In this document: in pieces, positions 11 to 6,250 of the stretch | Layout of the letters: every line of letters starts with the position of its first letter | How positions within the stretch are numbered: position 1 is the first letter of the stretch | Source of the DNA: Klenkia sp. | GTDB lineage: Bacteria > Actinomycetota > Actinomycetes > Mycobacteriales > Geodermatophilaceae | Length of the DNA: 6,250 bases | Assembly (NCBI GenBank): GCA_025966215.1 | Contig: JAOPVM010000377.1 | Location: 1 to 6,250 of the forward strand | Reading direction: 5' to 3' | Program-made: the position numbers and the translations under genes | The notes under the pieces: model-generated | What the model saw: the letters and a program-made list of their open reading frames with translations, nothing else | Told to the model about the DNA's origin: nothing | The model's database searches: none

Positions 11-463
11 GTGCGCATCGCTCTGGTCTCCGACCACAACGGGCACCGACTCCGGCGGGAGCTGGCCGCCTGGATCCGCGCGGACGGCCATGTCGTCGAG
101 GACCGGGGACCCGAGGGCGCCGACGTCGTGGACTACCCACCGCTGTGCGTCGAGGTCTGCGATCTCGTGGTCTCCGGTTCGGTCGATCGGGCGATCGTCG
201 TCGGAGGCAGTGGCATGGGAGAGACCATCGCCTGCAACAAGATCCCCGGGATCCGGGCGGGACTGTGCATCGACGTGTTCCACGCCCGCATCTCCCGGGC
301 CAACAACGACGCCAACGTCCTGGTGCTCGGCGCCAAGGTCGTGACCTCCTACCAGGCCCGCGCGATCACCCGGACGTGGTTGACGACGGACTTCACCGGG
401 GGCGTGCACGCCCGCAGGCTGGCGCAGATCTCCGACCTGGAACACCGCCGGGGACGGTCCTGA
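11..463 (+). CDS. RpiB/LacA/LacB-family sugar-phosphate isomerase
   Basis: Cytoplasmic aldose-ketose isomerase of the ribose-5-phosphate isomerase B family, 150 residues, the usual family length. The GTG start is chosen because the protein then begins with the family N-terminus (MRIALVSDHNG, Asp8-His9 being phosphosugar-site residues); only a weak GAG lies upstream and the frame is open to the window edge. The phosphate/catalytic loop is GGSGMGETIACNK (residues 65-77). The position of the E. coli RpiB catalytic Cys is Gly, and Glu71 sits where mycobacterial RpiB uses a Glu as acid/base, so this is the actinobacterial type. The usual SRxHNxxN segment reads SRANNDAN (95-102), so the histidine that opens the sugar ring in RpiB is Asn98. 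That suggests a substrate other than ribose 5-phosphate, for example a tetrulose phosphate or other open-chain sugar phosphate, but this is inference. It converges on the tctC-like gene and is not part of that operon. Confidence 0.88.
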   Translation: MRIALVSDHNGHRLRRELAAWIRADGHVVEDRGPEGADVVDYPPLCVEVCDLVVSGSVDRAIVVGGSGMGETIACNKIPGIRAGLCIDVFHARISRANNDANVLVLGAKVVTSYQARAITRTWLTTDFTGGVHARRLAQISDLEHRRGRS

Positions 464-509: not shown

Positions 510-1544
510 TCAGTAGCTGTCGACCACGAGTTCGCGGAACCCCTCCGGTCCGTCCAGCACCTCGGCCACCAACGCTGCGGTGTCGGCACCGCTCAGGGCG
601 TCCAGGGGCCGTTGCTGGTCCTCCAGCTCGGCCACGGTGTCGGCGTCCTCGACCGCGCACTGGAACCCTTCCCGCAGTGCCGTGACGCGGTCTTCCTCCA
701 TCTGCGGTGAGGCCATCAGACCGCGGCCGGTCTCCCCCAGGGCGATCAGGTTGTCGATGATGGTCCGGGCCTCATCCGTGGGCGGCTCGGTCTCGTAGAT
801 CGTCGGGGTGTCCGGCAGCAGGGGGTCGGGCTCCTCGGCGACCGTCACGAGCGGGCGCACGTCGCCGGCCTCGATGGCGGCCAGCTGGGAGTCGATGGGC
901 AACACGTGGGCATCGGCGTTGCCGGCGATGACCGCTGTCCGCGCCTCCGGGGCCCCCGCGAACCCGGTGATGATCTCGTAGGGGAACTCGTAGGCCTGCG
1001 CCAGGATGTTCGGGCCGATGTAGTCGTTGGCCCCGGGCCCCTGAGCCACGAACTGCACGGGGTCCGCGCTGTCCACGAGGTCCTGGAAGGACTCCACGGG
1101 GCTGTCCTGCGCCACGACCAACACGTTGGGCGGCGAGGAGATCCGGCCCAACCAGTTCAGGTCGTTGAGGTCGAACTGCGCGCCCTCGGCCTCGGCGATC
1201 TGCGCGGACACCAGCCCCACGGTGTTGACGATCTGGATGCGGTTGTCCCGTGGGCCCGCAGCAGCAGTCCGGTTGCTGGCCACCAGGCCACCGGCCCCCG
1301 GCTCGTTCCTGACGACCAGCGTCGCCCCGAGGCACTCCTCCAGGGCCGGGGCCAGGGCCCGGGCGTAGGCGTCGTACCCGCCACCGGGCTCGTAGGGGAC
1401 GACCAGGTCGATGTCCTCGCCCTCGAAGAGGGCCTCGGGGTCCGAGCCGCCACCGGACCCGCACGCACTCATCAGCAGCGCCGCGGTGACGACGGCGCCC
1501 AAGCGGGTCGTGGTGCGCCGTCGCGTGTTGTTCCTGGTCGACAT
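510..1544 (-). CDS. TctC/Bug-family solute-binding lipoprotein
   Basis: Extracytoplasmic binding protein of the tripartite tricarboxylate transporter family, 344 residues. The ATG at 1544 is chosen because GAGGGAG lies 7 nt upstream and the protein then opens with a proper signal peptide: basic n-region (RRR and other Arg, residues 8-14), hydrophobic h-region (15-25) and a lipobox-like LMSAC with lipidated Cys28, followed by a Gly/Ser linker. A frame extension to 1613 would bury this signal. Family marks are VPYEPGGGYD (49-58) and NEPGAGG (80-86), the two loops that hold a ligand carboxylate in Bug proteins, and AVIAGNADA in the second lobe. Cys71 and Cys296 could form a disulfide. No TctA or TctB membrane subunit is encoded in the window, so uptake must use subunits elsewhere, or the protein may act as a sensor. 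It lies 78 nt downstream of the hydrolase gene, past a hairpin, and is probably last in the operon or separately expressed. The ligand is unknown; an organic or aromatic carboxylate fits the family and the oxygenase context. Confidence 0.9.
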   Translation of the reverse strand: MSTRNNTRRRTTTRLGAVVTAALLMSACGSGGGSDPEALFEGEDIDLVVPYEPGGGYDAYARALAPALEECLGATLVVRNEPGAGGLVASNRTAAAGPRDNRIQIVNTVGLVSAQIAEAEGAQFDLNDLNWLGRISSPPNVLVVAQDSPVESFQDLVDSADPVQFVAQGPGANDYIGPNILAQAYEFPYEIITGFAGAPEARTAVIAGNADAHVLPIDSQLAAIEAGDVRPLVTVAEEPDPLLPDTPTIYETEPPTDEARTIIDNLIALGETGRGLMASPQMEEDRVTALREGFQCAVEDADTVAELEDQQRPLDALSGADTAALVAEVLDGPEGFRELVVDSY

Positions 1545-1551
1545 GGTGGAT

Positions 1552-1558
1552 CTCCCTC
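1552..1558 (-). promoter_or_regulatory. Ribosome binding site of the tctC-like gene
   Basis: GAGGGAG on the minus strand, 7 nt before the ATG at 1544. It decides for the internal start and against the longer open frame reaching 1613. Confidence 0.75.
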
Positions 1559-1569
1559 GTTGGAGTTCA

Positions 1570-1594
1570 CCGCCCGAGGCCTCCCCCCGGGCGG
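1570..1594 (-). terminator. Intergenic hairpin, possible attenuator or terminator
   Basis: CCGCCCG (1570-1576) and CGGGCGG (1588-1594) form a perfect 7-bp stem with an 11-nt loop. With one bulged G the stem extends by three more pairs (CAC/GTG). A smaller stem, GTGC/GCAC at 1597-1608, lies beside it. The structure sits between the hydrolase stop and the ribosome site of the tctC-like gene. No U-tract follows on the minus strand, so it may be a partial terminator or an mRNA processing or stability element that sets binding-protein expression apart from the enzymes. Confidence 0.45.
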
Positions 1595-1622
1595 GTGTGC
1601 TGTCGCACGCCACACGGACGGG

Positions 1623-2471
1623 TCAGTGGGCCTGCAGGAAGCTCATGACCTCGGCCGGGGCGTTCGCCGCGGTCTGCTCGGCCACCGGTACGTCCCAGAA
1701 CTCGTGCACGGGCAGGCACTCCTGCAGGTAGCGAGCTGCCGACGGGGCATGGGACGCGTCCTGGCCCGGCACGATCAGGGCCGGGACGTCGCACCCGAGA
1801 AGGTCCTCGGGTTCCGGGCCGGGCACGGTGTCCCGGTCGAACATCAACCGCGCCGTCGCGGTGACCGTCACCCCGTAGCGGTCCCGGTCCAGCACCCGGT
1901 ACCGCTCGGCGAAGGCGGCGTCCGTCCGGATGACGCTGTTCCACGGACCCACCCGGGGATCCGCGGTGAAACCCGCTGTTGAGCCCATGACCAGGTCGAC
2001 CACCGCGGGCAGCCCCTCGTCCTCGACGAAGGCGCGGTGGGCGGCGAAACGGGCATGCTGCTTCATCCGGTAGTGGACACCGCCGGCCGGGGAGTACAGC
2101 ACCATGCTCGACACACGTTCCGGGTGCTGCACGGCGAACGTGGCCACCGTCGAGCACCCCACGCAGCCCCCCATCAGGTGGGCCCGGTCGATGCCGAGGT
2201 GGTCGAGGAGTCCCCGCCCCTGCGAGACGTAGTCCGCCCACGTGAGGCGCTCGACCCTCCCCCCCGAATGCCCCGACTCCCGCCGGTCGAAGGTGATGCA
2301 GGTGAAGGCTGTGCCCAGCTGCTCCAGCAGGGCGAGACGCTTGTAGGTGCCGACGGTCCGCCAGCTCTCCAGCGTCGAGTCGAAGCCCCCCGGAGAGAAC
2401 ATCAGCAGCGGTGGCCCCTCTCCGGTGACCTCGTAGCGCGTGGGGATCCCGTCGATCACGGCCGTGGGCAT
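1623..2471 (-). CDS. Alpha/beta hydrolase with Cys nucleophile elbow
   Basis: Cytoplasmic alpha/beta-hydrolase-fold enzyme, 282 residues, no signal peptide. The ATG at 2471 follows AAGGAG with 7-nt spacing, and the protein then begins at the first strand of the fold. Order of marks: oxyanion region LLMFSPGG (22-29), FDRRESGHS (61-69) as in MhpC-like hydrolases, nucleophile elbow GGCVG (101-105) with Cys103 where Ser is usual, and a strand ending VPGQD with the likely acid Asp238. The usual C-terminal GH before a P-E-V helix is missing: the region reads AEQTAANAPAEV (264-275). His241, just after the acid, or the terminal His282 are the only nearby histidines. Cys nucleophiles occur in dienelactone hydrolase, but this protein is longer and otherwise resembles the MhpC/haloperoxidase-like group. 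Its start lies 19 nt after the PanB-like stop, so the two are co-transcribed. It may hydrolyse an ester, lactone, thioester or C-C bond in the oxygenase product; the substrate is unknown. Confidence 0.85.
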   Translation of the reverse strand: MPTAVIDGIPTRYEVTGEGPPLLMFSPGGFDSTLESWRTVGTYKRLALLEQLGTAFTCITFDRRESGHSGGRVERLTWADYVSQGRGLLDHLGIDRAHLMGGCVGCSTVATFAVQHPERVSSMVLYSPAGGVHYRMKQHARFAAHRAFVEDEGLPAVVDLVMGSTAGFTADPRVGPWNSVIRTDAAFAERYRVLDRDRYGVTVTATARLMFDRDTVPGPEPEDLLGCDVPALIVPGQDASHAPSAARYLQECLPVHEFWDVPVAEQTAANAPAEVMSFLQAH

Positions 2472-2478
2472 GAGCGGA

Positions 2479-2484
2479 CTCCTT
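2479..2484 (-). promoter_or_regulatory. Ribosome binding site of the hydrolase gene
   Basis: AAGGAG on the minus strand, 7 nt before the ATG at 2471. It rules out the longer in-frame reading that would overlap the upstream PanB-like gene. Confidence 0.78.
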
Positions 2485-2490
2485 CCGGGG

Positions 2491-3330
2491 TCAGGCAGGG
2501 GGTGGGGGCATCGGGATGCCGCCGGGCAGCTGACGGGCGGACCTGACGTCCTCGGCGTAGGACGTGATCGCACCCAAGGTGAGCTCGGCGACGTTGACGT
2601 AGCTGTCGGTGGTGCCGTCCACGGCCGAGGCCGCGTAGCCGATGGCGGCGTGGACCATCCGCATCCGGCCGTCCAACCACGGCCCGCCACCGAAACCGCC
2701 CAGCACCGGGACGGACACGGCGCCGGCGACGGCAGCCCCCACCACGGGTCCGGAGTTGGTGAAGTTCAGCAGGGCCGCCCCGGCCTCCTCCAGCCGCCGG
2801 GCCTGCGCGATGAGGTCATCGGTGAGCTCGTCGGGCACCGTGTCGTCGGCCGAGGGGACCGACTTGTAGGCGATGCCGTAGCGCAGTGCGGTCTGGGGGG
2901 TGATGCCGAACTGCGCGAAGACCGGGATCCCGCTACGGGTGACGGCCTCCACGGCGTCCAGGTGGTCAGCGGCGCCGTCGAGCTTGACCAGGTCCACCCC
3001 CGCCTCCTTGACGAAGCGGATCGCTGCGCGCACGGCCTCGACCGGACCCTCCTGCAGCGGCCCGAACGGGAAGTCGACGCTGACCAGAGCTCGCCGCACC
3101 CCCCGCCGGACGGCCTGGGCGACGACCAGCATCTGCTCCATCGTCACCTCGAGCGGGTTCGTGTGACCCCACAGGTTGACACCGACGGTGTCGCCGACGG
3201 ACACCAGATCCACGCCTGCGCGGTCCACGATCCGGGCGATCTGGTAGTCCCAGGCAACCACCCCGACGATCTTCCGACGCTGCACCTTCATGTCCTGCAG
3301 CCCGCGCAGGGTCACTGCCGCCTGGTCCAT
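2491..3330 (-). CDS. Divergent PanB/ketopantoate hydroxymethyltransferase homologue
   Basis: A 279-residue protein of the PanB family (PEP mutase/isocitrate lyase-like TIM barrel); PanB transfers a hydroxymethyl group from methylene-tetrahydrofolate to 2-oxoisovalerate. The ATG has GAGG 7 nt upstream, overlapping the preceding gene's stop. Conserved with E. coli PanB: AWDYQIA (26-32), VGDTVG (45-50; metal ligand Asp47), the GH of LWGH, SVDFPFG (84-90; metal ligand Asp86), VKLDG (115-119; Lys116, with Asp for the usual Glu), GITPQ and the LDGRM region near 219-223. Not conserved: the E. coli His136 position is Gln140, and the LVLEC segment with catalytic Glu181 reads LLNFTNSGP (187-195), putting Thr191 at the base position. 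The C-terminus ends in a proline run. A metal-bound 2-oxo acid or enolate chemistry is likely kept, but ketopantoate synthesis is doubtful. Its place between an oxygenase and a hydrolase argues for a catabolic role, perhaps retro-aldol C-C cleavage (inference). Confidence 0.85.
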   Translation of the reverse strand: MDQAAVTLRGLQDMKVQRRKIVGVVAWDYQIARIVDRAGVDLVSVGDTVGVNLWGHTNPLEVTMEQMLVVAQAVRRGVRRALVSVDFPFGPLQEGPVEAVRAAIRFVKEAGVDLVKLDGAADHLDAVEAVTRSGIPVFAQFGITPQTALRYGIAYKSVPSADDTVPDELTDDLIAQARRLEEAGAALLNFTNSGPVVGAAVAGAVSVPVLGGFGGGPWLDGRMRMVHAAIGYAASAVDGTTDSYVNVAELTLGAITSYAEDVRSARQLPGGIPMPPPPA

Positions 3331-3339
3331 GTCGACGCC

Positions 3340-3849
3340 TCAGACGCGCAGCGCGGTCAGGACGTCCACGACGTCGGTCTCGTCCGCCGAGGGCAGGAGC
3401 ACCCGCGCGTGCGGGCGCAGCGCTGCCACCGCAGCTGATGCCGCGGTCCCCTGGTGCGTTCCCTCGCCCAGCACCAGGCCCGCGGTCTGCACACCCCGTT
3501 CCCAGCACGCCTTGCCCAGCGCGTACGCGCACTCGGCGCCCTCGTCCGACGTCGCGACCATCACCACCACCGACGCGCTGGCCAGCTCGTCGGCCAGCGT
3601 GGCCGGCCCGCCGTCGATCCCGGACAACACGATGCTCCCGGCACTGCCGGCCGCGGGCCGGCAGACGTAGAACCGGGCGTTGGCCCACGAGTGCTGGGCG
3701 GTCCGCTCCAGGACCCGGGCGGCTCCCTCGTCCAGGGCGATCACCCGGCCCGCTCGGGAGGGCGCGATGGGGCGGTCGATCCGGTAGCCGGCCTCGGCGG
3801 CGGTGGCCGCTCGGGCACAACTGCTGAGCAGGCTGGTCTCGATGCCCAT
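3340..3849 (-). CDS. Unrecognised 169-residue protein, translationally coupled to the oxygenase gene
   Basis: I do not recognise this family. The ATG overlaps the oxygenase TGA as TGATG, so translation is probably coupled; GGGGGTG about 11 nt upstream may help. The open frame continues upstream across the oxygenase gene but there encodes only an antisense-like Arg/Gly-rich shift of it, so the short start is right. The protein has no signal peptide or membrane segment. Residues 34-50 and 59-65 look like short strands and a helix. The C-terminal half (from about 83) alternates strand and helix: SVVVMVATSDEGAE (93-106), an alpha-helix rich in Ala/Cys, GVQTAGLVLGEG (119-130), an Ala-rich helix, then ARVLLPSADETDVVDVLTAL (148-167). 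That pattern resembles a Rossmann-like sheet with Gly-containing turns, although no full nucleotide-binding motif is seen. Four cysteines (11, 63, 107, 115) are spaced unlike any iron-sulfur motif. The PanB-like gene starts 9 nt downstream, so it may be a partner or accessory of that enzyme. Confidence 0.75.
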   Translation of the reverse strand: MGIETSLLSSCARAATAAEAGYRIDRPIAPSRAGRVIALDEGAARVLERTAQHSWANARFYVCRPAAGSAGSIVLSGIDGGPATLADELASASVVVMVATSDEGAECAYALGKACWERGVQTAGLVLGEGTHQGTAASAAVAALRPHARVLLPSADETDVVDVLTALRV

Positions 3850-5135
3850 CAGACCGACGACACCCCCACGCCCGGACGGACCTTCACGTCCTCGGCGGCC
3901 GCCTCCAGGAACGCCTCCGCCTGCGGGAGGACGACCGCGGCGGACCGCACGTGGTGGTGGGCGGGGTCCACACCCGGCGGGGTGGTCCCGTTCTCCCGCA
4001 GCGCCTTGGCCGCGCGGTACAGCTTCTGCCGGGCCTTGATGATGCCGCTGTCGGCCGGCACCAGGCGCTCCTTGGTGCGGTCCACGATCGGGCCCATGCT
4101 CTCCTGCAGCGAGGAGTCCTGGATCGCGATCCCCTTGACCCCGGAGTAGTACTCGCCGCGCTTCTGCGCCTCGCGGTCCATCAGGTAGTCGTTGTCCATG
4201 TTGGCGACCGGACGGTAGGTGCCGGGGATGTTCTCGCTGTGCACGCCGTGACCGTCGATCATGGCCTGCCGCTCCTCGGCGGTCAGAGCACGCATCGGGT
4301 GGTAGTCGTAGCTGTAGGCCCAGCAGTTCTCGTCGTCGATCGGGATCCAGAAGTGGCCGTGGATCGGGTGGTCGCCGCGCGGCGGCACCATGGTGAAGGA
4401 GGGCATGACCCACGGCGTGATCCGCCAGTAGTAGCTGCCCTCCTCGGCGTTGCGACGTGCCCCCACGAACAAGCCGCCGGGTGAGTCGGCGACCTCGAAG
4501 AAGGGCTTCTTGTCGTTGGCGTTGTACTCGTTGCCCTTGGCGCCCTTGAAGAGCGGATCGGTCTTCAGCCCACCCGAGTGCAAGAAGGTGACGTGGCTGG
4601 AGTCGATGCCACCCTCGAAGGCCTGCAACCAGTTGGACTGCTGCCACCGCTTGGACGTGTAGGTCTGCTCAGCGGGAACGAGGGCGAACTCCCACTCGGG
4701 CAACGGCGGCTGCGAGGCCGGATCGCCCATGTACGTCCACAGGATGTCCCCGATCTTGACCAGGGGGTAGGACGTGAGGCGGACGTTCTCGGCGAAACTG
4801 CTGTTGTCGGCCTCGGAGGGCACGTCCACGCACTGGCCCGTCGAGTCGTACTTCCAGCCGTGGTACGGGCAGCGCAGCCCACCCTCTTCGTTGCGGCCGA
4901 ACCAGAGCGAGGCTCCGCGGTGGGCGCAGAACTCGTCGATCAGCCCGTAGTTGCCGTAGCTGTCCCGGAAGGCGACCAGCCGCTCGGACAGCAGCTTCAG
5001 GCGGATCGGTGGGCAGCCGTCCTCGGGCAGTTCCTCGGCCAGACAGGCCGGCATCCAGTACTGGCGGTACAGGTCGCCCATGGGCGTCCCCGGCCCGGTC
5101 TGGGTGAGCATGTCGTTGATGTCCTGACGGAGCAC
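3849..5135 (-). CDS. Rieske non-heme iron oxygenase, alpha subunit
   Basis: Catalytic subunit of a Rieske oxygenase, 428 residues, cytoplasmic. The GTG start has GAGGGG 6 nt upstream and gives the N-terminus typical of the phthalate-dioxygenase-like group, with GPGTPMG and YRQYWMPA near residues 14-30. The Rieske [2Fe-2S] site is Cys70-X-His72 and Cys89-X2-His92, separated by 16 residues. The mononuclear iron site is Asp178-X2-His181-X4-His186, Asp178 being the bridging acid, with Asp340 in GIAIQDSSLQESMGP (335-349) the likely third ligand; NWLQAFEGG (168-176) precedes it. DRTKERL (352-358) is also typical of this alpha-only group, and no beta subunit gene is present, so a homotrimer is expected. 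Electrons probably come from the ferredoxin encoded just upstream; a reductase is not in the window. It would hydroxylate an aromatic or other ring compound, or demethylate an aryl ether; the substrate cannot be read from the sequence. Confidence 0.95.
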   Translation of the reverse strand: MLRQDINDMLTQTGPGTPMGDLYRQYWMPACLAEELPEDGCPPIRLKLLSERLVAFRDSYGNYGLIDEFCAHRGASLWFGRNEEGGLRCPYHGWKYDSTGQCVDVPSEADNSSFAENVRLTSYPLVKIGDILWTYMGDPASQPPLPEWEFALVPAEQTYTSKRWQQSNWLQAFEGGIDSSHVTFLHSGGLKTDPLFKGAKGNEYNANDKKPFFEVADSPGGLFVGARRNAEEGSYYWRITPWVMPSFTMVPPRGDHPIHGHFWIPIDDENCWAYSYDYHPMRALTAEERQAMIDGHGVHSENIPGTYRPVANMDNDYLMDREAQKRGEYYSGVKGIAIQDSSLQESMGPIVDRTKERLVPADSGIIKARQKLYRAAKALRENGTTPPGVDPAHHHVRSAAVVLPQAEAFLEAAAEDVKVRPGVGVSSV

Positions 5136-5141
5136 GGTGTT

Positions 5142-5147
5142 CCCCTC
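5142..5147 (-). promoter_or_regulatory. Ribosome binding site of the Rieske oxygenase gene
   Basis: GAGGGG on the minus strand, 6 nt before the GTG at 5135. It supports the GTG over the in-frame ATG at residue 9. Confidence 0.72.
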
Positions 5148-5162
5148 ATCCGGCGCCCCGAC

Positions 5163-5216
5163 GCGACGACGTCGCTCGGGACTGGTGGTCGTGGTGCGAT
5201 TCGGGCCGGCCGCCCG
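5163..5216 (-). other. Two small hairpins in the ferredoxin-oxygenase gap
   Basis: The 85-nt gap holds CGGGC/GCCCG (5202-5206 with 5212-5216, 5-nt loop), starting 4 nt after the ferredoxin stop. It also holds GCGAC/GTCGC (5163-5167 with 5171-5175, 3-nt loop). Neither has a T-run. In high-GC DNA stems this short arise often by chance. If real, they could set the ratio of ferredoxin to oxygenase mRNA. Confidence 0.25.
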
Positions 5217-5220
5217 TGGG

Positions 5221-5544
5221 TCAGGGCTGGATCGGCGGGATGTCGACGGTCAGTCCGTCGAGCTCGAGCCCCAACTGGATCTGGCAGGACAGTCGGCTGC
5301 CGTCCCGGCGCTCGGAGACGGCCATGTCGAGGAGGTCTTCCTCCACGTCCCCGGGCTCGCCCACCGCGGGCACGAACTCCTCGCGCACCCACACGTGACA
5401 GGTGGCGCACGAGGCGTTGCCGCCGCACTCCCCGATGATCCCGGGGACGCCGTTGCGGACGGCCGTGATCATCACCGAGTCACCCACGACAGCATCGATG
5501 ACCCGCTCGGTCCCGTCGCTGTGCACGAAACTGACCTTCGGCAC
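5221..5544 (-). CDS. Adrenodoxin/putidaredoxin-type [2Fe-2S] ferredoxin
   Basis: Soluble one-electron carrier, 107 residues, the normal family length. The cluster ligands are Cys40-X5-Cys46-X2-Cys49 and Cys87, with CATCHVW (46-52) and LSCQI (85-89) as in adrenodoxin, putidaredoxin and terpredoxin. The acidic helix EEDLLD (68-73) matches the segment used by this group to dock on its reductase. The GTG start at 5544 has GGAGGG (5554-5559) 9 nt upstream, and the protein begins with the first beta strand (PKVSFVHSDG). It is the first gene of the operon and lies directly before the Rieske oxygenase gene, so it probably feeds that enzyme. A ferredoxin of this type, rather than a fused or plant-type one, suggests a three-component system with a glutathione-reductase-like FAD ferredoxin reductase encoded elsewhere, as in class IIA dioxygenases; that is inference. 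A P450 partner is an alternative, but no P450 gene is seen. Confidence 0.93.
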   Translation of the reverse strand: MPKVSFVHSDGTERVIDAVVGDSVMITAVRNGVPGIIGECGGNASCATCHVWVREEFVPAVGEPGDVEEDLLDMAVSERRDGSRLSCQIQLGLELDGLTVDIPPIQP

Positions 5545-5653: not shown

Positions 5654-6250
5654 ATGACCTGCCTGGTGTTGCTCCGCCACGGTGAGAGCGACGGCAATGC
5701 CGCCGGCCGGTTCACCGGGTGGGCCGACGCGCCGCTGACCGAGCGTGGTCGCGAGCAGGCACGTCGCAGCGGGGCGCTCCTGCGTGCAGCAGGGCTCTCG
5801 CCCACCAGGCTGCACACGTCGGTGCTGGCGAGGGCCATCGACACCGGTGCGCTCGCCTGCGAGGCCGGACAGGTCACCGACATCCCCGTCCGGCGTTCCT
5901 GGCGGCTCAACGAGCGGCACTACGGGGCCCTGCAGGGCCGAGACCGGTCGGCAGTCGTGGCCCAGTACGGCCCCGACCAGGTGCAGCGGTGGCGGAGGTC
6001 CTACGACGGCCGGCCGCCGCCGGTGCCTCGCGGAGGTTCCGGTGACCCTGCCCTCGACCCCCGGTACGCAGGTGTCCCGGTCGGCCTCCTGCCGCGCGCG
6101 GAGAGCCTGCGGGAGGTGCAGGACCGGGTGCTGCCCTACTGGCGGGGAGCCGTCCTGCCGGACCTGCGTACCGGGCACACGGTGCTCGTCGTCGGGCACA
6201 GCAACTCTCTGCGGGCCCTCATCGCCTGGGTGGACCAGCTCACCGCCATC
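5654..6250 (+). CDS. 2,3-bisphosphoglycerate-dependent phosphoglycerate mutase, 3' end missing
   Basis: Interconverts 3- and 2-phosphoglycerate in glycolysis through a phosphohistidine intermediate. The window holds 199 in-frame codons and no stop; full proteins have about 230-250 residues, so only the C-terminal tail is lost. Conserved with E. coli GpmA: LLRHGES (6-12; His9 is phosphorylated), RFTGWAD (19-25), TSVLARAI (55-62; Arg60), LNERHYGALQG (85-95; Glu87 acid/base), QRWRRSYD (111-118), DPRYA (135-139), ESLREVQDRVLPYW (150-163) and the second histidine His182 in GHSNSLRALI. The common form of that last motif is AHGNSLRAL, so two positions differ. The full insert typical of the mutase, absent from short phosphatases of this superfamily, is present. 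The ATG start is fixed by the N-terminal strand; the transcript may be leaderless. It is divergent from the oxygenase operon and may be a second mutase copy rather than the main glycolytic one. Confidence 0.9.
   Translation, partial: MTCLVLLRHGESDGNAAGRFTGWADAPLTERGREQARRSGALLRAAGLSPTRLHTSVLARAIDTGALACEAGQVTDIPVRRSWRLNERHYGALQGRDRSAVVAQYGPDQVQRWRRSYDGRPPPVPRGGSGDPALDPRYAGVPVGLLPRAESLREVQDRVLPYWRGAVLPDLRTGHTVLVVGHSNSLRALIAWVDQLTAI

What the first reader, a model, noticed from the sequence alone, without database searches (positions are those of the whole stretch)
510..5544. Possible undescribed catabolic operon: ferredoxin, Rieske oxygenase, unknown protein, PanB-like, Cys-hydrolase, TctC-like
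Six same-strand genes, four tightly packed, join an electron carrier, an oxygenase, a 2-oxo-acid-type TIM-barrel enzyme, a hydrolase and a carboxylate-binding lipoprotein. I know of no named pathway with this set. Seen: gene order, spacing and motifs. Known: Rieske enzymes start ring catabolism, and Bug proteins bind carboxylates. Inferred: uptake and oxidation of an organic acid, followed by C-C and ester or lactone cleavage.
Basis: partly seen in the sequence, partly recalled or inferred. Interest (0 to 1): 0.75.

Follow-up and report, generated by a model that had tools for sequence, protein, structure and literature searches.

The report
Isophthalate-type operon with FtsZ-fold partner
These genes belong to a gene cluster found in many actinobacteria that likely breaks down an aromatic acid resembling isophthalate, and the cluster's unknown small protein is predicted to have the fold of the cell-division protein FtsZ and to assist the ring-attacking enzyme.

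Summary
The six minus-strand genes are real; four are packed with gaps of -1, 9 and 19 nt. In 40 of 41 loci found through the 169-residue protein the order Rieske oxygenase, 169-aa protein, PanB-like, Cys-hydrolase is kept, across several actinobacterial genera and Thermoleophilia. RpiB and a phosphoglycerate-mutase-like gene usually flank it. Another contig of the same genome carries genes that follow in relatives: alcohol dehydrogenase, CHA aldolase (LigK), 4-oxalomesaconate hydratase (LigJ), two paralogues of a dihydroxyphthalate-decarboxylase-like family, a ferredoxin reductase. The oxygenase is nearest to isophthalate dioxygenase, keeps both carboxylate-binding residues and has an extra invariant Arg. 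The 169-aa protein is predicted to have an FtsZ nucleotide-binding-domain fold without the GTP-binding signature. The PanB-like protein lacks KPHMT catalytic residues. No characterised pathway with this set turned up in the open-access searches run. Best reading: an isophthalate-like aromatic polycarboxylate is oxidised and funnelled to 4-oxalomesaconate, then pyruvate and oxaloacetate. Substrate, ring cleavage and the roles of the FtsZ-fold and PanB-like proteins are inferred.

The parts
11..463 (+). RpiB/LacAB-family sugar-phosphate isomerase paralogue, convergent with the operon; part of the conserved cluster (outside the finding's coordinates)
   Evidence: PF02502 1.6e-43; second RpiB elsewhere in the genome; opposite-strand RpiB near the oxygenase in 29 of 41 loci
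510..1544 (-). TctC/Bug-type solute-binding lipoprotein; lineage-specific end of the operon
   Evidence: PF03401 6.5e-17; directly after the hydrolase in 5 of 41 loci; lipobox-like LMSAC seen in the sequence (motif recalled)
1623..2471 (-). alpha/beta-hydrolase-fold protein with Cys at the nucleophile position (GGCVGCS)
   Evidence: PF00561 1.1e-12; Cys103, Cys106, Asp238, His241, His145 invariant in 17 of 17 rows; no conserved His in the usual C-terminal catalytic-His region
2491..3330 (-). PanB-like TIM-barrel-family protein, paralogue of the genome's canonical PanB; by its residues not a ketopantoate hydroxymethyltransferase
   Evidence: PF02548 1.6e-61; below NCBIfam PanB cut-offs; canonical PanB on C312; Glu181->Thr, His136->Gln
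3340..3849 (-). 169-aa protein predicted to have the fold of the FtsZ nucleotide-binding domain without the tubulin signature; its start overlaps the oxygenase stop
   Evidence: AlphaFold2 model, Foldseek and VIA-align, profile comparison; first possible start -4 to +9 nt from the oxygenase stop in 35 of 37 loci measured
3849..5135 (-). Rieske non-haem iron oxygenase, isophthalate-dioxygenase-like (LigXa_C type)
   Evidence: PF00355, PF19301; best solved relative 9INA, 450 bits; ten pocket sites invariant in 41 of 41 loci apart from V/I at one site
5221..5544 (-). [2Fe-2S] ferredoxin of putidaredoxin type, the likely electron donor
   Evidence: PF00111 9e-9; best solved match 4ltu 5.4e-30, putidaredoxin 1oqq 2.9e-26; same strand just upstream of the oxygenase in 31 of 41 loci
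5654..6250 (+). phosphoglycerate-mutase-like gene (cut by the contig end), divergent from the operon; part of the conserved cluster
   Evidence: PF00300 6.4e-32 and TIGR01258 above cut-off; opposite-strand copy upstream of the oxygenase in 23 of 41 loci

Best explanation
The six genes are part of a gene cluster conserved across actinobacteria, which likely catabolises an isophthalate-like aromatic polycarboxylate, beginning with a Rieske dioxygenase that is predicted to work with a small FtsZ-fold partner protein. Shown from sequence: the gene set and order; the pocket residues; the LigJ and LigK assignments of the copies on contig C410; loss of KPHMT catalytic residues in the PanB-like protein; absence of the GGGTG signature in the 169-aa family. 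Inferred: that C423 and C410 are neighbours in this genome (from the order in relatives), and the whole chain that follows. The binding protein helps uptake; NAD(P)H -> ferredoxin reductase -> putidaredoxin-type ferredoxin -> oxygenase makes a cis-dihydrodiol of a substrate with two meta carboxylates and probably a third anionic group held by Arg253; the zinc-type dehydrogenase re-aromatises it; one or both dihydroxyphthalate-decarboxylase-like proteins remove CO2; an unidentified ring-cleavage step, not LigAB in most of the genomes tested, gives a product that the Cys-hydrolase and the PanB-like barrel (as a C-C lyase or isomerase) convert towards 4-oxalomesaconate; LigJ hydrates it and LigK splits the product into pyruvate and oxaloacetate. 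The FtsZ-fold protein, encoded right after the oxygenase, is most likely a non-GTPase binding partner that assembles or protects the oxygenase.
Against: No expression, growth or enzyme data. The substrate is read from one crystal structure; F249, I294, F333 and L198 differ (R, V, I, N). No ring-cleavage enzyme is identified: the bicupin is in 22 of 41 loci, only a 42-residue match was found in this 73%-complete genome, and its model was poor. ADH, LigK and LigJ are not all near in 9 of the 37 loci, among them the Blastococcus loci that share the TctC gene. The 330-aa decarboxylase-like gene is in 18 of 41 loci, and of the 40 plasmid relatives listed 27 are named substrate-binding proteins and 6 dihydroxyphthalate decarboxylase, so it may be a binding protein. 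RpiB, the mutase-like gene and EutA have no place in the scheme. The FtsZ model is moderate (pLDDT 77); only one Foldseek match is below E 0.001 (FtsZ 7ojb, 8.8e-4, TM 0.52), a non-FtsZ fold (TRAP, 4hqf) ranks second and MglA fourteenth; the best profile hit in PDB sequences is a BMC-domain protein (E 0.11) ahead of FtsZ (0.19); Pfam Tubulin does not match. The cluster is patchy: no match to the 169-aa protein in the 8 same-genus genomes listed.
Confidence: 0.55

Rival explanations
1. It is an ordinary isophthalate or phthalate pathway: the oxygenase and dehydrogenase make protocatechuate, which enters the 4,5-cleavage pathway, and the PanB-like, RpiB and mutase-like genes are passengers.
For: Nearest solved relative is isophthalate dioxygenase; LigJ and LigK are 4,5-cleavage enzymes; the LigA subunit of protocatechuate 4,5-dioxygenase is present in 4 of 16 cluster-bearing genomes.
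Against: LigA was not found in 12 of 16, two of them single-contig genomes listed as 99 and 100% complete (G317, G049), though another ring-cleavage dioxygenase was not looked for; the PanB-like gene is in the core order in 40 of 41 loci; the pocket has an extra invariant Arg and lacks F249 and F333; in the known isophthalate route the dehydrogenase step also loses the CO2 (passages of the review PMC13040137), so decarboxylase-like genes would not be needed.
Confidence: 0.2
2. The substrate is a nitrogen or oxygen heterocycle or a methoxylated lignin acid (for example a pyridine dicarboxylate or 5-carboxyvanillate), with the oxygenase acting on that ring or as an O-demethylase.
For: The oxygenase carries the LigXa_C domain, named after an O-demethylase (recalled); 55%-identical oxygenases with a dehydrogenase and an FtsZ-like gene sit on plasmids of Arthrobacter and Rhodococcus, and Arthrobacter crystallopoietes is recalled as a hydroxypyridine degrader; meta-dicarboxylate geometry also fits dipicolinate and 5-carboxyvanillate (inference).
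Against: The 55% relatives have Phe, not Arg, at the discriminating pocket site; LigJ and LigK point to a C7 tricarboxylate end product usual for carbocyclic acids.
Confidence: 0.2
3. The 169-aa protein is a Rossmann-like small-molecule or NAD(P)-binding protein that only resembles FtsZ, acting as a separate enzyme or sensor, not as an oxygenase partner.
For: FtsZ's domain is itself Rossmann-like (recalled); non-FtsZ folds are in the same Foldseek list, TRAP at rank 2 and MglA at rank 14; one relative matches F420_oxidored weakly and another is named NAD(P)-binding in a database.
Against: Profile comparison singles out FtsZ over three control alignments, one of them a dehydrogenase with a Rossmann domain (against 90, 91, 108, 109, 127, 128); it stays with the oxygenase in rhizobial plasmids where no PanB-like gene was found in the stretches taken.
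Confidence: 0.25

Closest known systems
Isophthalate catabolism (IPDO of Comamonas testosteroni KF1; iph genes of Comamonas sp. E6)
   Same: Oxygenase family, both carboxylate-binding residues (R234, H257), a carboxylate-binding-protein gene in the Blastococcus and Modestobacter loci
   Different: IPDO is described as two-component with its reductase (PMC12445078, abstract and passages); here a separate putidaredoxin-type ferredoxin and another reductase type; extra Arg in the pocket; FtsZ-fold, PanB-like, Cys-hydrolase, RpiB and mutase-like genes have no counterpart that I know of (recalled)
Phthalate 4,5-dioxygenase pathway (pht/oph)
   Same: Rieske oxygenase, dehydrogenase and 4,5-dihydroxyphthalate-decarboxylase-like proteins
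   Different: Oxygenase is nearer to isophthalate than phthalate dioxygenase (450 against 307 bits); zinc-type dehydrogenase; two decarboxylase-like paralogues
Protocatechuate 4,5-cleavage lower pathway (lig/pmd)
   Same: LigJ and LigK
   Different: LigA not found in 12 of 16 cluster-bearing genomes; no LigC- or LigI-like gene among the 18 called genes of the Streptomyces locus L066
PanB, ketopantoate hydroxymethyltransferase
   Same: Pfam family, metal-site Asp pair and Lys kept
   Different: Glu181->Thr (17 of 18), His136->Gln (18 of 18), Glu114->Asp (18 of 18); canonical PanB is elsewhere in the genome
FtsZ nucleotide-binding domain
   Same: Predicted fold and weak profile similarity
   Different: No GGGTG in any of the called 169-aa family members, no C-terminal domain, encoded with an oxygenase
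Plasmid clusters of Arthrobacter, Rhodococcus, Caballeronia and rhizobia
   Same: Related oxygenase (54-73%), zinc-type dehydrogenase, FtsZ-like small protein
   Different: No PanB-like gene found in the stretches taken

Membership tests
Isophthalate dioxygenase (IPDO) | Closest characterised sequence is IPDO | tested here: met
   Among solved structures: 9INA 450 bits, next 7FHR 307 bits
Isophthalate dioxygenase (IPDO) | R234 and H257 for the two carboxylates | tested here: met
   R238 and H261 in 41 of 41 loci, sites from PMC12445078 passages
Isophthalate dioxygenase (IPDO) | Remaining pocket residues F249, I294, F333 | tested here: not met
   R, V, I in 41 of 41
Isophthalate dioxygenase (IPDO) | Two-component system, no separate ferredoxin | tested here: not met
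   Separate Fer2 ferredoxin just upstream in 31 of 41 loci and a ferredoxin-reductase-type flavoprotein
Isophthalate dioxygenase (IPDO) | Activity on isophthalate | not testable with these tools
   -
PanB (KPHMT) | Pantoate_transf family | tested here: met
   PF02548 208.5 bits
PanB (KPHMT) | NCBIfam PanB cut-offs | tested here: not met
   161.4 bits against 207.55 and 187.7 against 272
PanB (KPHMT) | Catalytic Glu181 and His136 (E. coli numbering and roles recalled) | tested here: not met
   Thr in 17 of 18 and Gln in 18 of 18; the genome's canonical PanB row has Glu and His
FtsZ/tubulin | Nucleotide-binding-domain fold | tested here: met
FtsZ/tubulin | Tubulin signature GGGTG | tested here: not met
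   None in the called family members; Pfam Tubulin not matched with the limit at E 10
FtsZ/tubulin | GTP binding and polymerisation | not testable with these tools
   -
Serine alpha/beta hydrolase | Fold family | tested here: met
   PF00561 48.6 bits
Serine alpha/beta hydrolase | Ser nucleophile | tested here: not met
   Cys in 17 of 17
Serine alpha/beta hydrolase | Catalytic His at the usual late position | tested here: inconclusive
   No conserved His there; His241 and His145 invariant elsewhere
4,5-cleavage lower pathway (LigJ, LigK) | LigK equivalog score | tested here: met
   316.5 against 304.5 for the copy on C410
4,5-cleavage lower pathway (LigJ, LigK) | LigJ closest relatives are OMA hydratases | tested here: met
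   2gwg 455 bits, LigY-type 170 bits
4,5-cleavage lower pathway (LigJ, LigK) | LigAB ring-cleavage dioxygenase in the genome | tested here: inconclusive
   PF07746 (LigA) in 4 of 16 cluster-bearing genomes; none in the window's genome, which is only 73% complete

The most novel reading that the evidence does not exclude
A degenerate FtsZ (tubulin-superfamily) domain has been recruited as a dedicated subunit of one branch of Rieske oxygenases, and in actinobacteria this enzyme opens a so far undescribed pathway for aromatic tricarboxylates that reaches 4-oxalomesaconate without protocatechuate 4,5-dioxygenase, using a repurposed PanB barrel and a Cys-type hydrolase.
Probability: 0.3. Interest if true: 0.8.

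Novelty: new variant of a known kind. Interest (0 to 1): 0.6.

Why it matters
If true, Rieske oxygenases, a much used enzyme group in biodegradation, have a kind of partner that the searches here did not find described, and the tubulin fold has a role outside filaments. The cluster would also give actinobacteria a route for aromatic polycarboxylates, compounds that arise from oxidised lignin, humus, charcoal and plastics (recalled), with two repurposed enzymes whose family names (PanB, hydrolase) may mislead. Complete versions of the cluster are in named strains, so the claims can be tested.

Tried and rejected
Bicupin next to EutA as the ring-cleavage enzyme: its predicted structure was poor (pLDDT 58) and matched bicupins in general, led by oxalate decarboxylases and seed storage proteins; its only family-specific hints were weak (cupin glucose-6-phosphate isomerases and one gentisate dioxygenase); left open. 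A 2-hydroxypyridine (hpo) pathway for the 55% relatives: the key paper is not held; passages of PMC6525221 say only that ring dioxygenation of 2-hydroxypyridine is reported from Rhodococcus rhodochrous PY11, without genes; PMC7441240 held none of the terms. Trimellitate and related terms: of 731 papers the 25 listed were, by title and abstract start, about materials or exposure. Literature for the set, listings only and capped: 25 of 678; 20 of 130; 1 of 1, a genome announcement; 15 of 33; 8 of 8, one listed copy each; none of the titles or abstract starts describes the set. PHROGs and Pfam gave no family for the 169-aa protein. Rfam: none. Sigma-70 promoter scan: none; terminator-like sites 3 against 1.3 expected. 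Direct profile comparison of the two FtsZ-like groups was weak (probability 29, 14), so their kinship rests on the bridging locus L135 and on FtsZ similarity. A further control alignment failed; the dehydrogenase alignment served instead.

Sampling limits: the 41 loci were found through the 169-aa protein. Starting from the oxygenase instead, 394 genomes gave 12 places: the 7 at 54% or more, the window among them, all have the 169-aa protein or an FtsZ-like relative in the same stretch (in L135 about 4 kb from the oxygenase); none of the 5 at 38-42% has one at E 1 or better in the 12-13 kb taken. Of the 16 plasmid records at 54% or more I opened 7 and all 7 have one; two more have the 169-aa match next to the oxygenase by coordinates; 7 were not looked at. 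In the start-distance count 4 of 41 loci were left out because the gene was not called there.
Full report
Observation. The six genes exist as described, all on the minus strand of the window: ferredoxin 5221-5544, Rieske oxygenase 3849-5135, a 169-aa protein 3340-3849, PanB-like 2491-3330, alpha/beta hydrolase 1623-2471 and a TctC-type lipoprotein 510-1544. The middle four genes are separated by -1, 9 and 19 nt. The window is one whole contig (C423) of a 73%-complete draft genome; the nearest named relatives of the 169-aa protein are from Modestobacter and Blastococcus.

Conservation. A search of one genome per species with an alignment of the 169-aa protein gave 41 loci, among them Blastococcus, Modestobacter, Streptomyces, Pseudonocardia, Amycolatopsis, Kibdelosporangium, Phytohabitans, Acrocarpospora, Nocardioides, Thermoleophilia and a Mycolicibacterium plasmid. 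Oxygenase, 169-aa protein, PanB-like and hydrolase keep this order in 40 of 41; the miss ends at a contig edge. The ferredoxin is just upstream in 31, RpiB near the cluster in 29, the mutase-like gene in 23, the TctC gene in 5. In the window's own family the PanB-like gene and strong hits to the 169-aa protein fall in the same 11 of 112 genomes; two more genomes have weak hits to the 169-aa protein only. None of the 8 same-genus genomes listed has it, so the cluster is patchy.

The rest of the cluster. In many relatives RpiB is followed by a 305-315-aa protein, then on the other strand a zinc-type alcohol dehydrogenase, an RraA-family protein, an amidohydrolase and a 330-aa protein, then a flavoprotein ferredoxin reductase. 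The same genes are on contig C410 of the window's genome, which begins with the 305-aa-type gene just as the window begins with RpiB; that the two contigs are neighbours is inferred from the relatives. On C410 the RraA protein is a CHA aldolase by curated cut-off (LigK, 316.5 against 304.5), and the amidohydrolase is nearest to 4-oxalomesaconate hydratases (2gwg 455 bits). Dehydrogenase, LigK and LigJ are together in 28 of the 37 loci with at least 8 kb downstream of the oxygenase start; the Blastococcus loci with the TctC gene lack them nearby. The 305- and 330-aa proteins are paralogues. The Streptomyces 330-aa copy is 47-54% identical to 6 of 40 listed plasmid relatives that are named 4,5-dihydroxyphthalate decarboxylase; 27 of the 40 are named substrate-binding proteins. 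The 305-aa type was not compared with named decarboxylases directly. A bicupin and an EutA-like ATPase are near in 22 of 41 loci each; in the window's genome EutA was not found and the bicupin gave only a short match, which its incompleteness could explain.

Oxygenase. The nearest solved structure is 9INA (450 bits), then phthalate 4,5-dioxygenase 7FHR (307 bits). The one paper that holds the code 9INA is on isophthalate dioxygenase of Comamonas testosteroni KF1 (PMC12445078, abstract and passages). It names R234 and H257 as the residues that hold the two carboxylates. I matched its numbering to the alignment by the residues themselves. Both are kept in the window (R238, H261) and in all 41 loci; G172 and V178 are kept and T175 is Ser; F249 is Arg, L198 is Asn, I294 is Val and F333 is Ile in all 41; I246 is Val in 39 and Ile in 2. 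In the paper a His placed at F249 gave a new carboxylate contact on the ortho face, so an invariant Arg there suggests a third anionic group on the substrate. This last step is inference. The rhizobial and Caballeronia relatives share the Arg; the 55% relatives of Arthrobacter and Rhodococcus have Phe.

PanB-like and hydrolase. Against the genome's canonical PanB, the PanB-like rows keep the two metal-site Asp and the Lys but have Asp for Glu114 and Gln for His136 in 18 of 18 and Thr for Glu181 in 17 of 18 (E. coli numbering and roles recalled). The window protein scores below the curated PanB cut-offs. It is therefore not expected to make ketopantoate. The hydrolase has Cys at the nucleophile position in 17 of 17 rows, three rhizobial ones included, and no conserved His at the usual place, while His241 and His145 are invariant. 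Both look like family members with changed chemistry.

Pathway. LigJ and LigK set the end: 4-oxalomesaconate to pyruvate and oxaloacetate. The LigA subunit of protocatechuate 4,5-dioxygenase, one usual start of that route, was not found in 12 of 16 cluster-bearing genomes, two single-contig ones included, and was found in 4. So in most of them either something in the cluster or another dioxygenase cleaves the ring. Substrate and ring cleavage stay open.

Verdict. A real, widely conserved catabolic cluster with no name found, a new variant of the isophthalate/phthalate kind, with one feature that would surprise a specialist: a predicted FtsZ-fold protein travelling with a branch of Rieske oxygenases.

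Noticed in passing
L094 (contig C410 of the same genome) 2-6493: Further genes of the cluster: decarboxylase-like (cut by the contig end), alcohol dehydrogenase, LigK, LigJ, decarboxylase-like, ferredoxin reductase.
   Followed up: yes
window 11-463 and 5654-6250: RpiB and phosphoglycerate-mutase-like genes flank the cluster in 29 and 23 of 41 loci although sugar phosphates have no place in the inferred pathway.
   Followed up: partly
L066 4515-7286 and the same genes in 22 of 41 loci; L085 6306-9077: An EutA-like ATPase and a bicupin form a pair that recurs in actinobacterial and rhizobial versions of the cluster; role unknown.
   Followed up: partly
L084, L085, L087 (rhizobial plasmids): Plasmids of Sinorhizobium, Phyllobacterium and Rhizobium carry a version with oxygenase, FtsZ-like protein, Cys-hydrolase, dehydrogenase and LigJ but no PanB-like gene in the stretch; the Phyllobacterium one has two class II aldolases and a TctA-type permease nearby.
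   Followed up: partly
L089 (Rhodococcus aetherivorans plasmid pN1): A 55%-identical oxygenase with dehydrogenase, FtsZ-like protein and reductase lies beside a two-subunit ring-hydroxylating dioxygenase with a PdxA-like gene.
   Followed up: no
L136 (G068 contig C76): A more distant oxygenase (39%) sits with dehydrogenase, LigJ-like and several RraA-family genes; no FtsZ-like gene found in the stretch.
   Followed up: no
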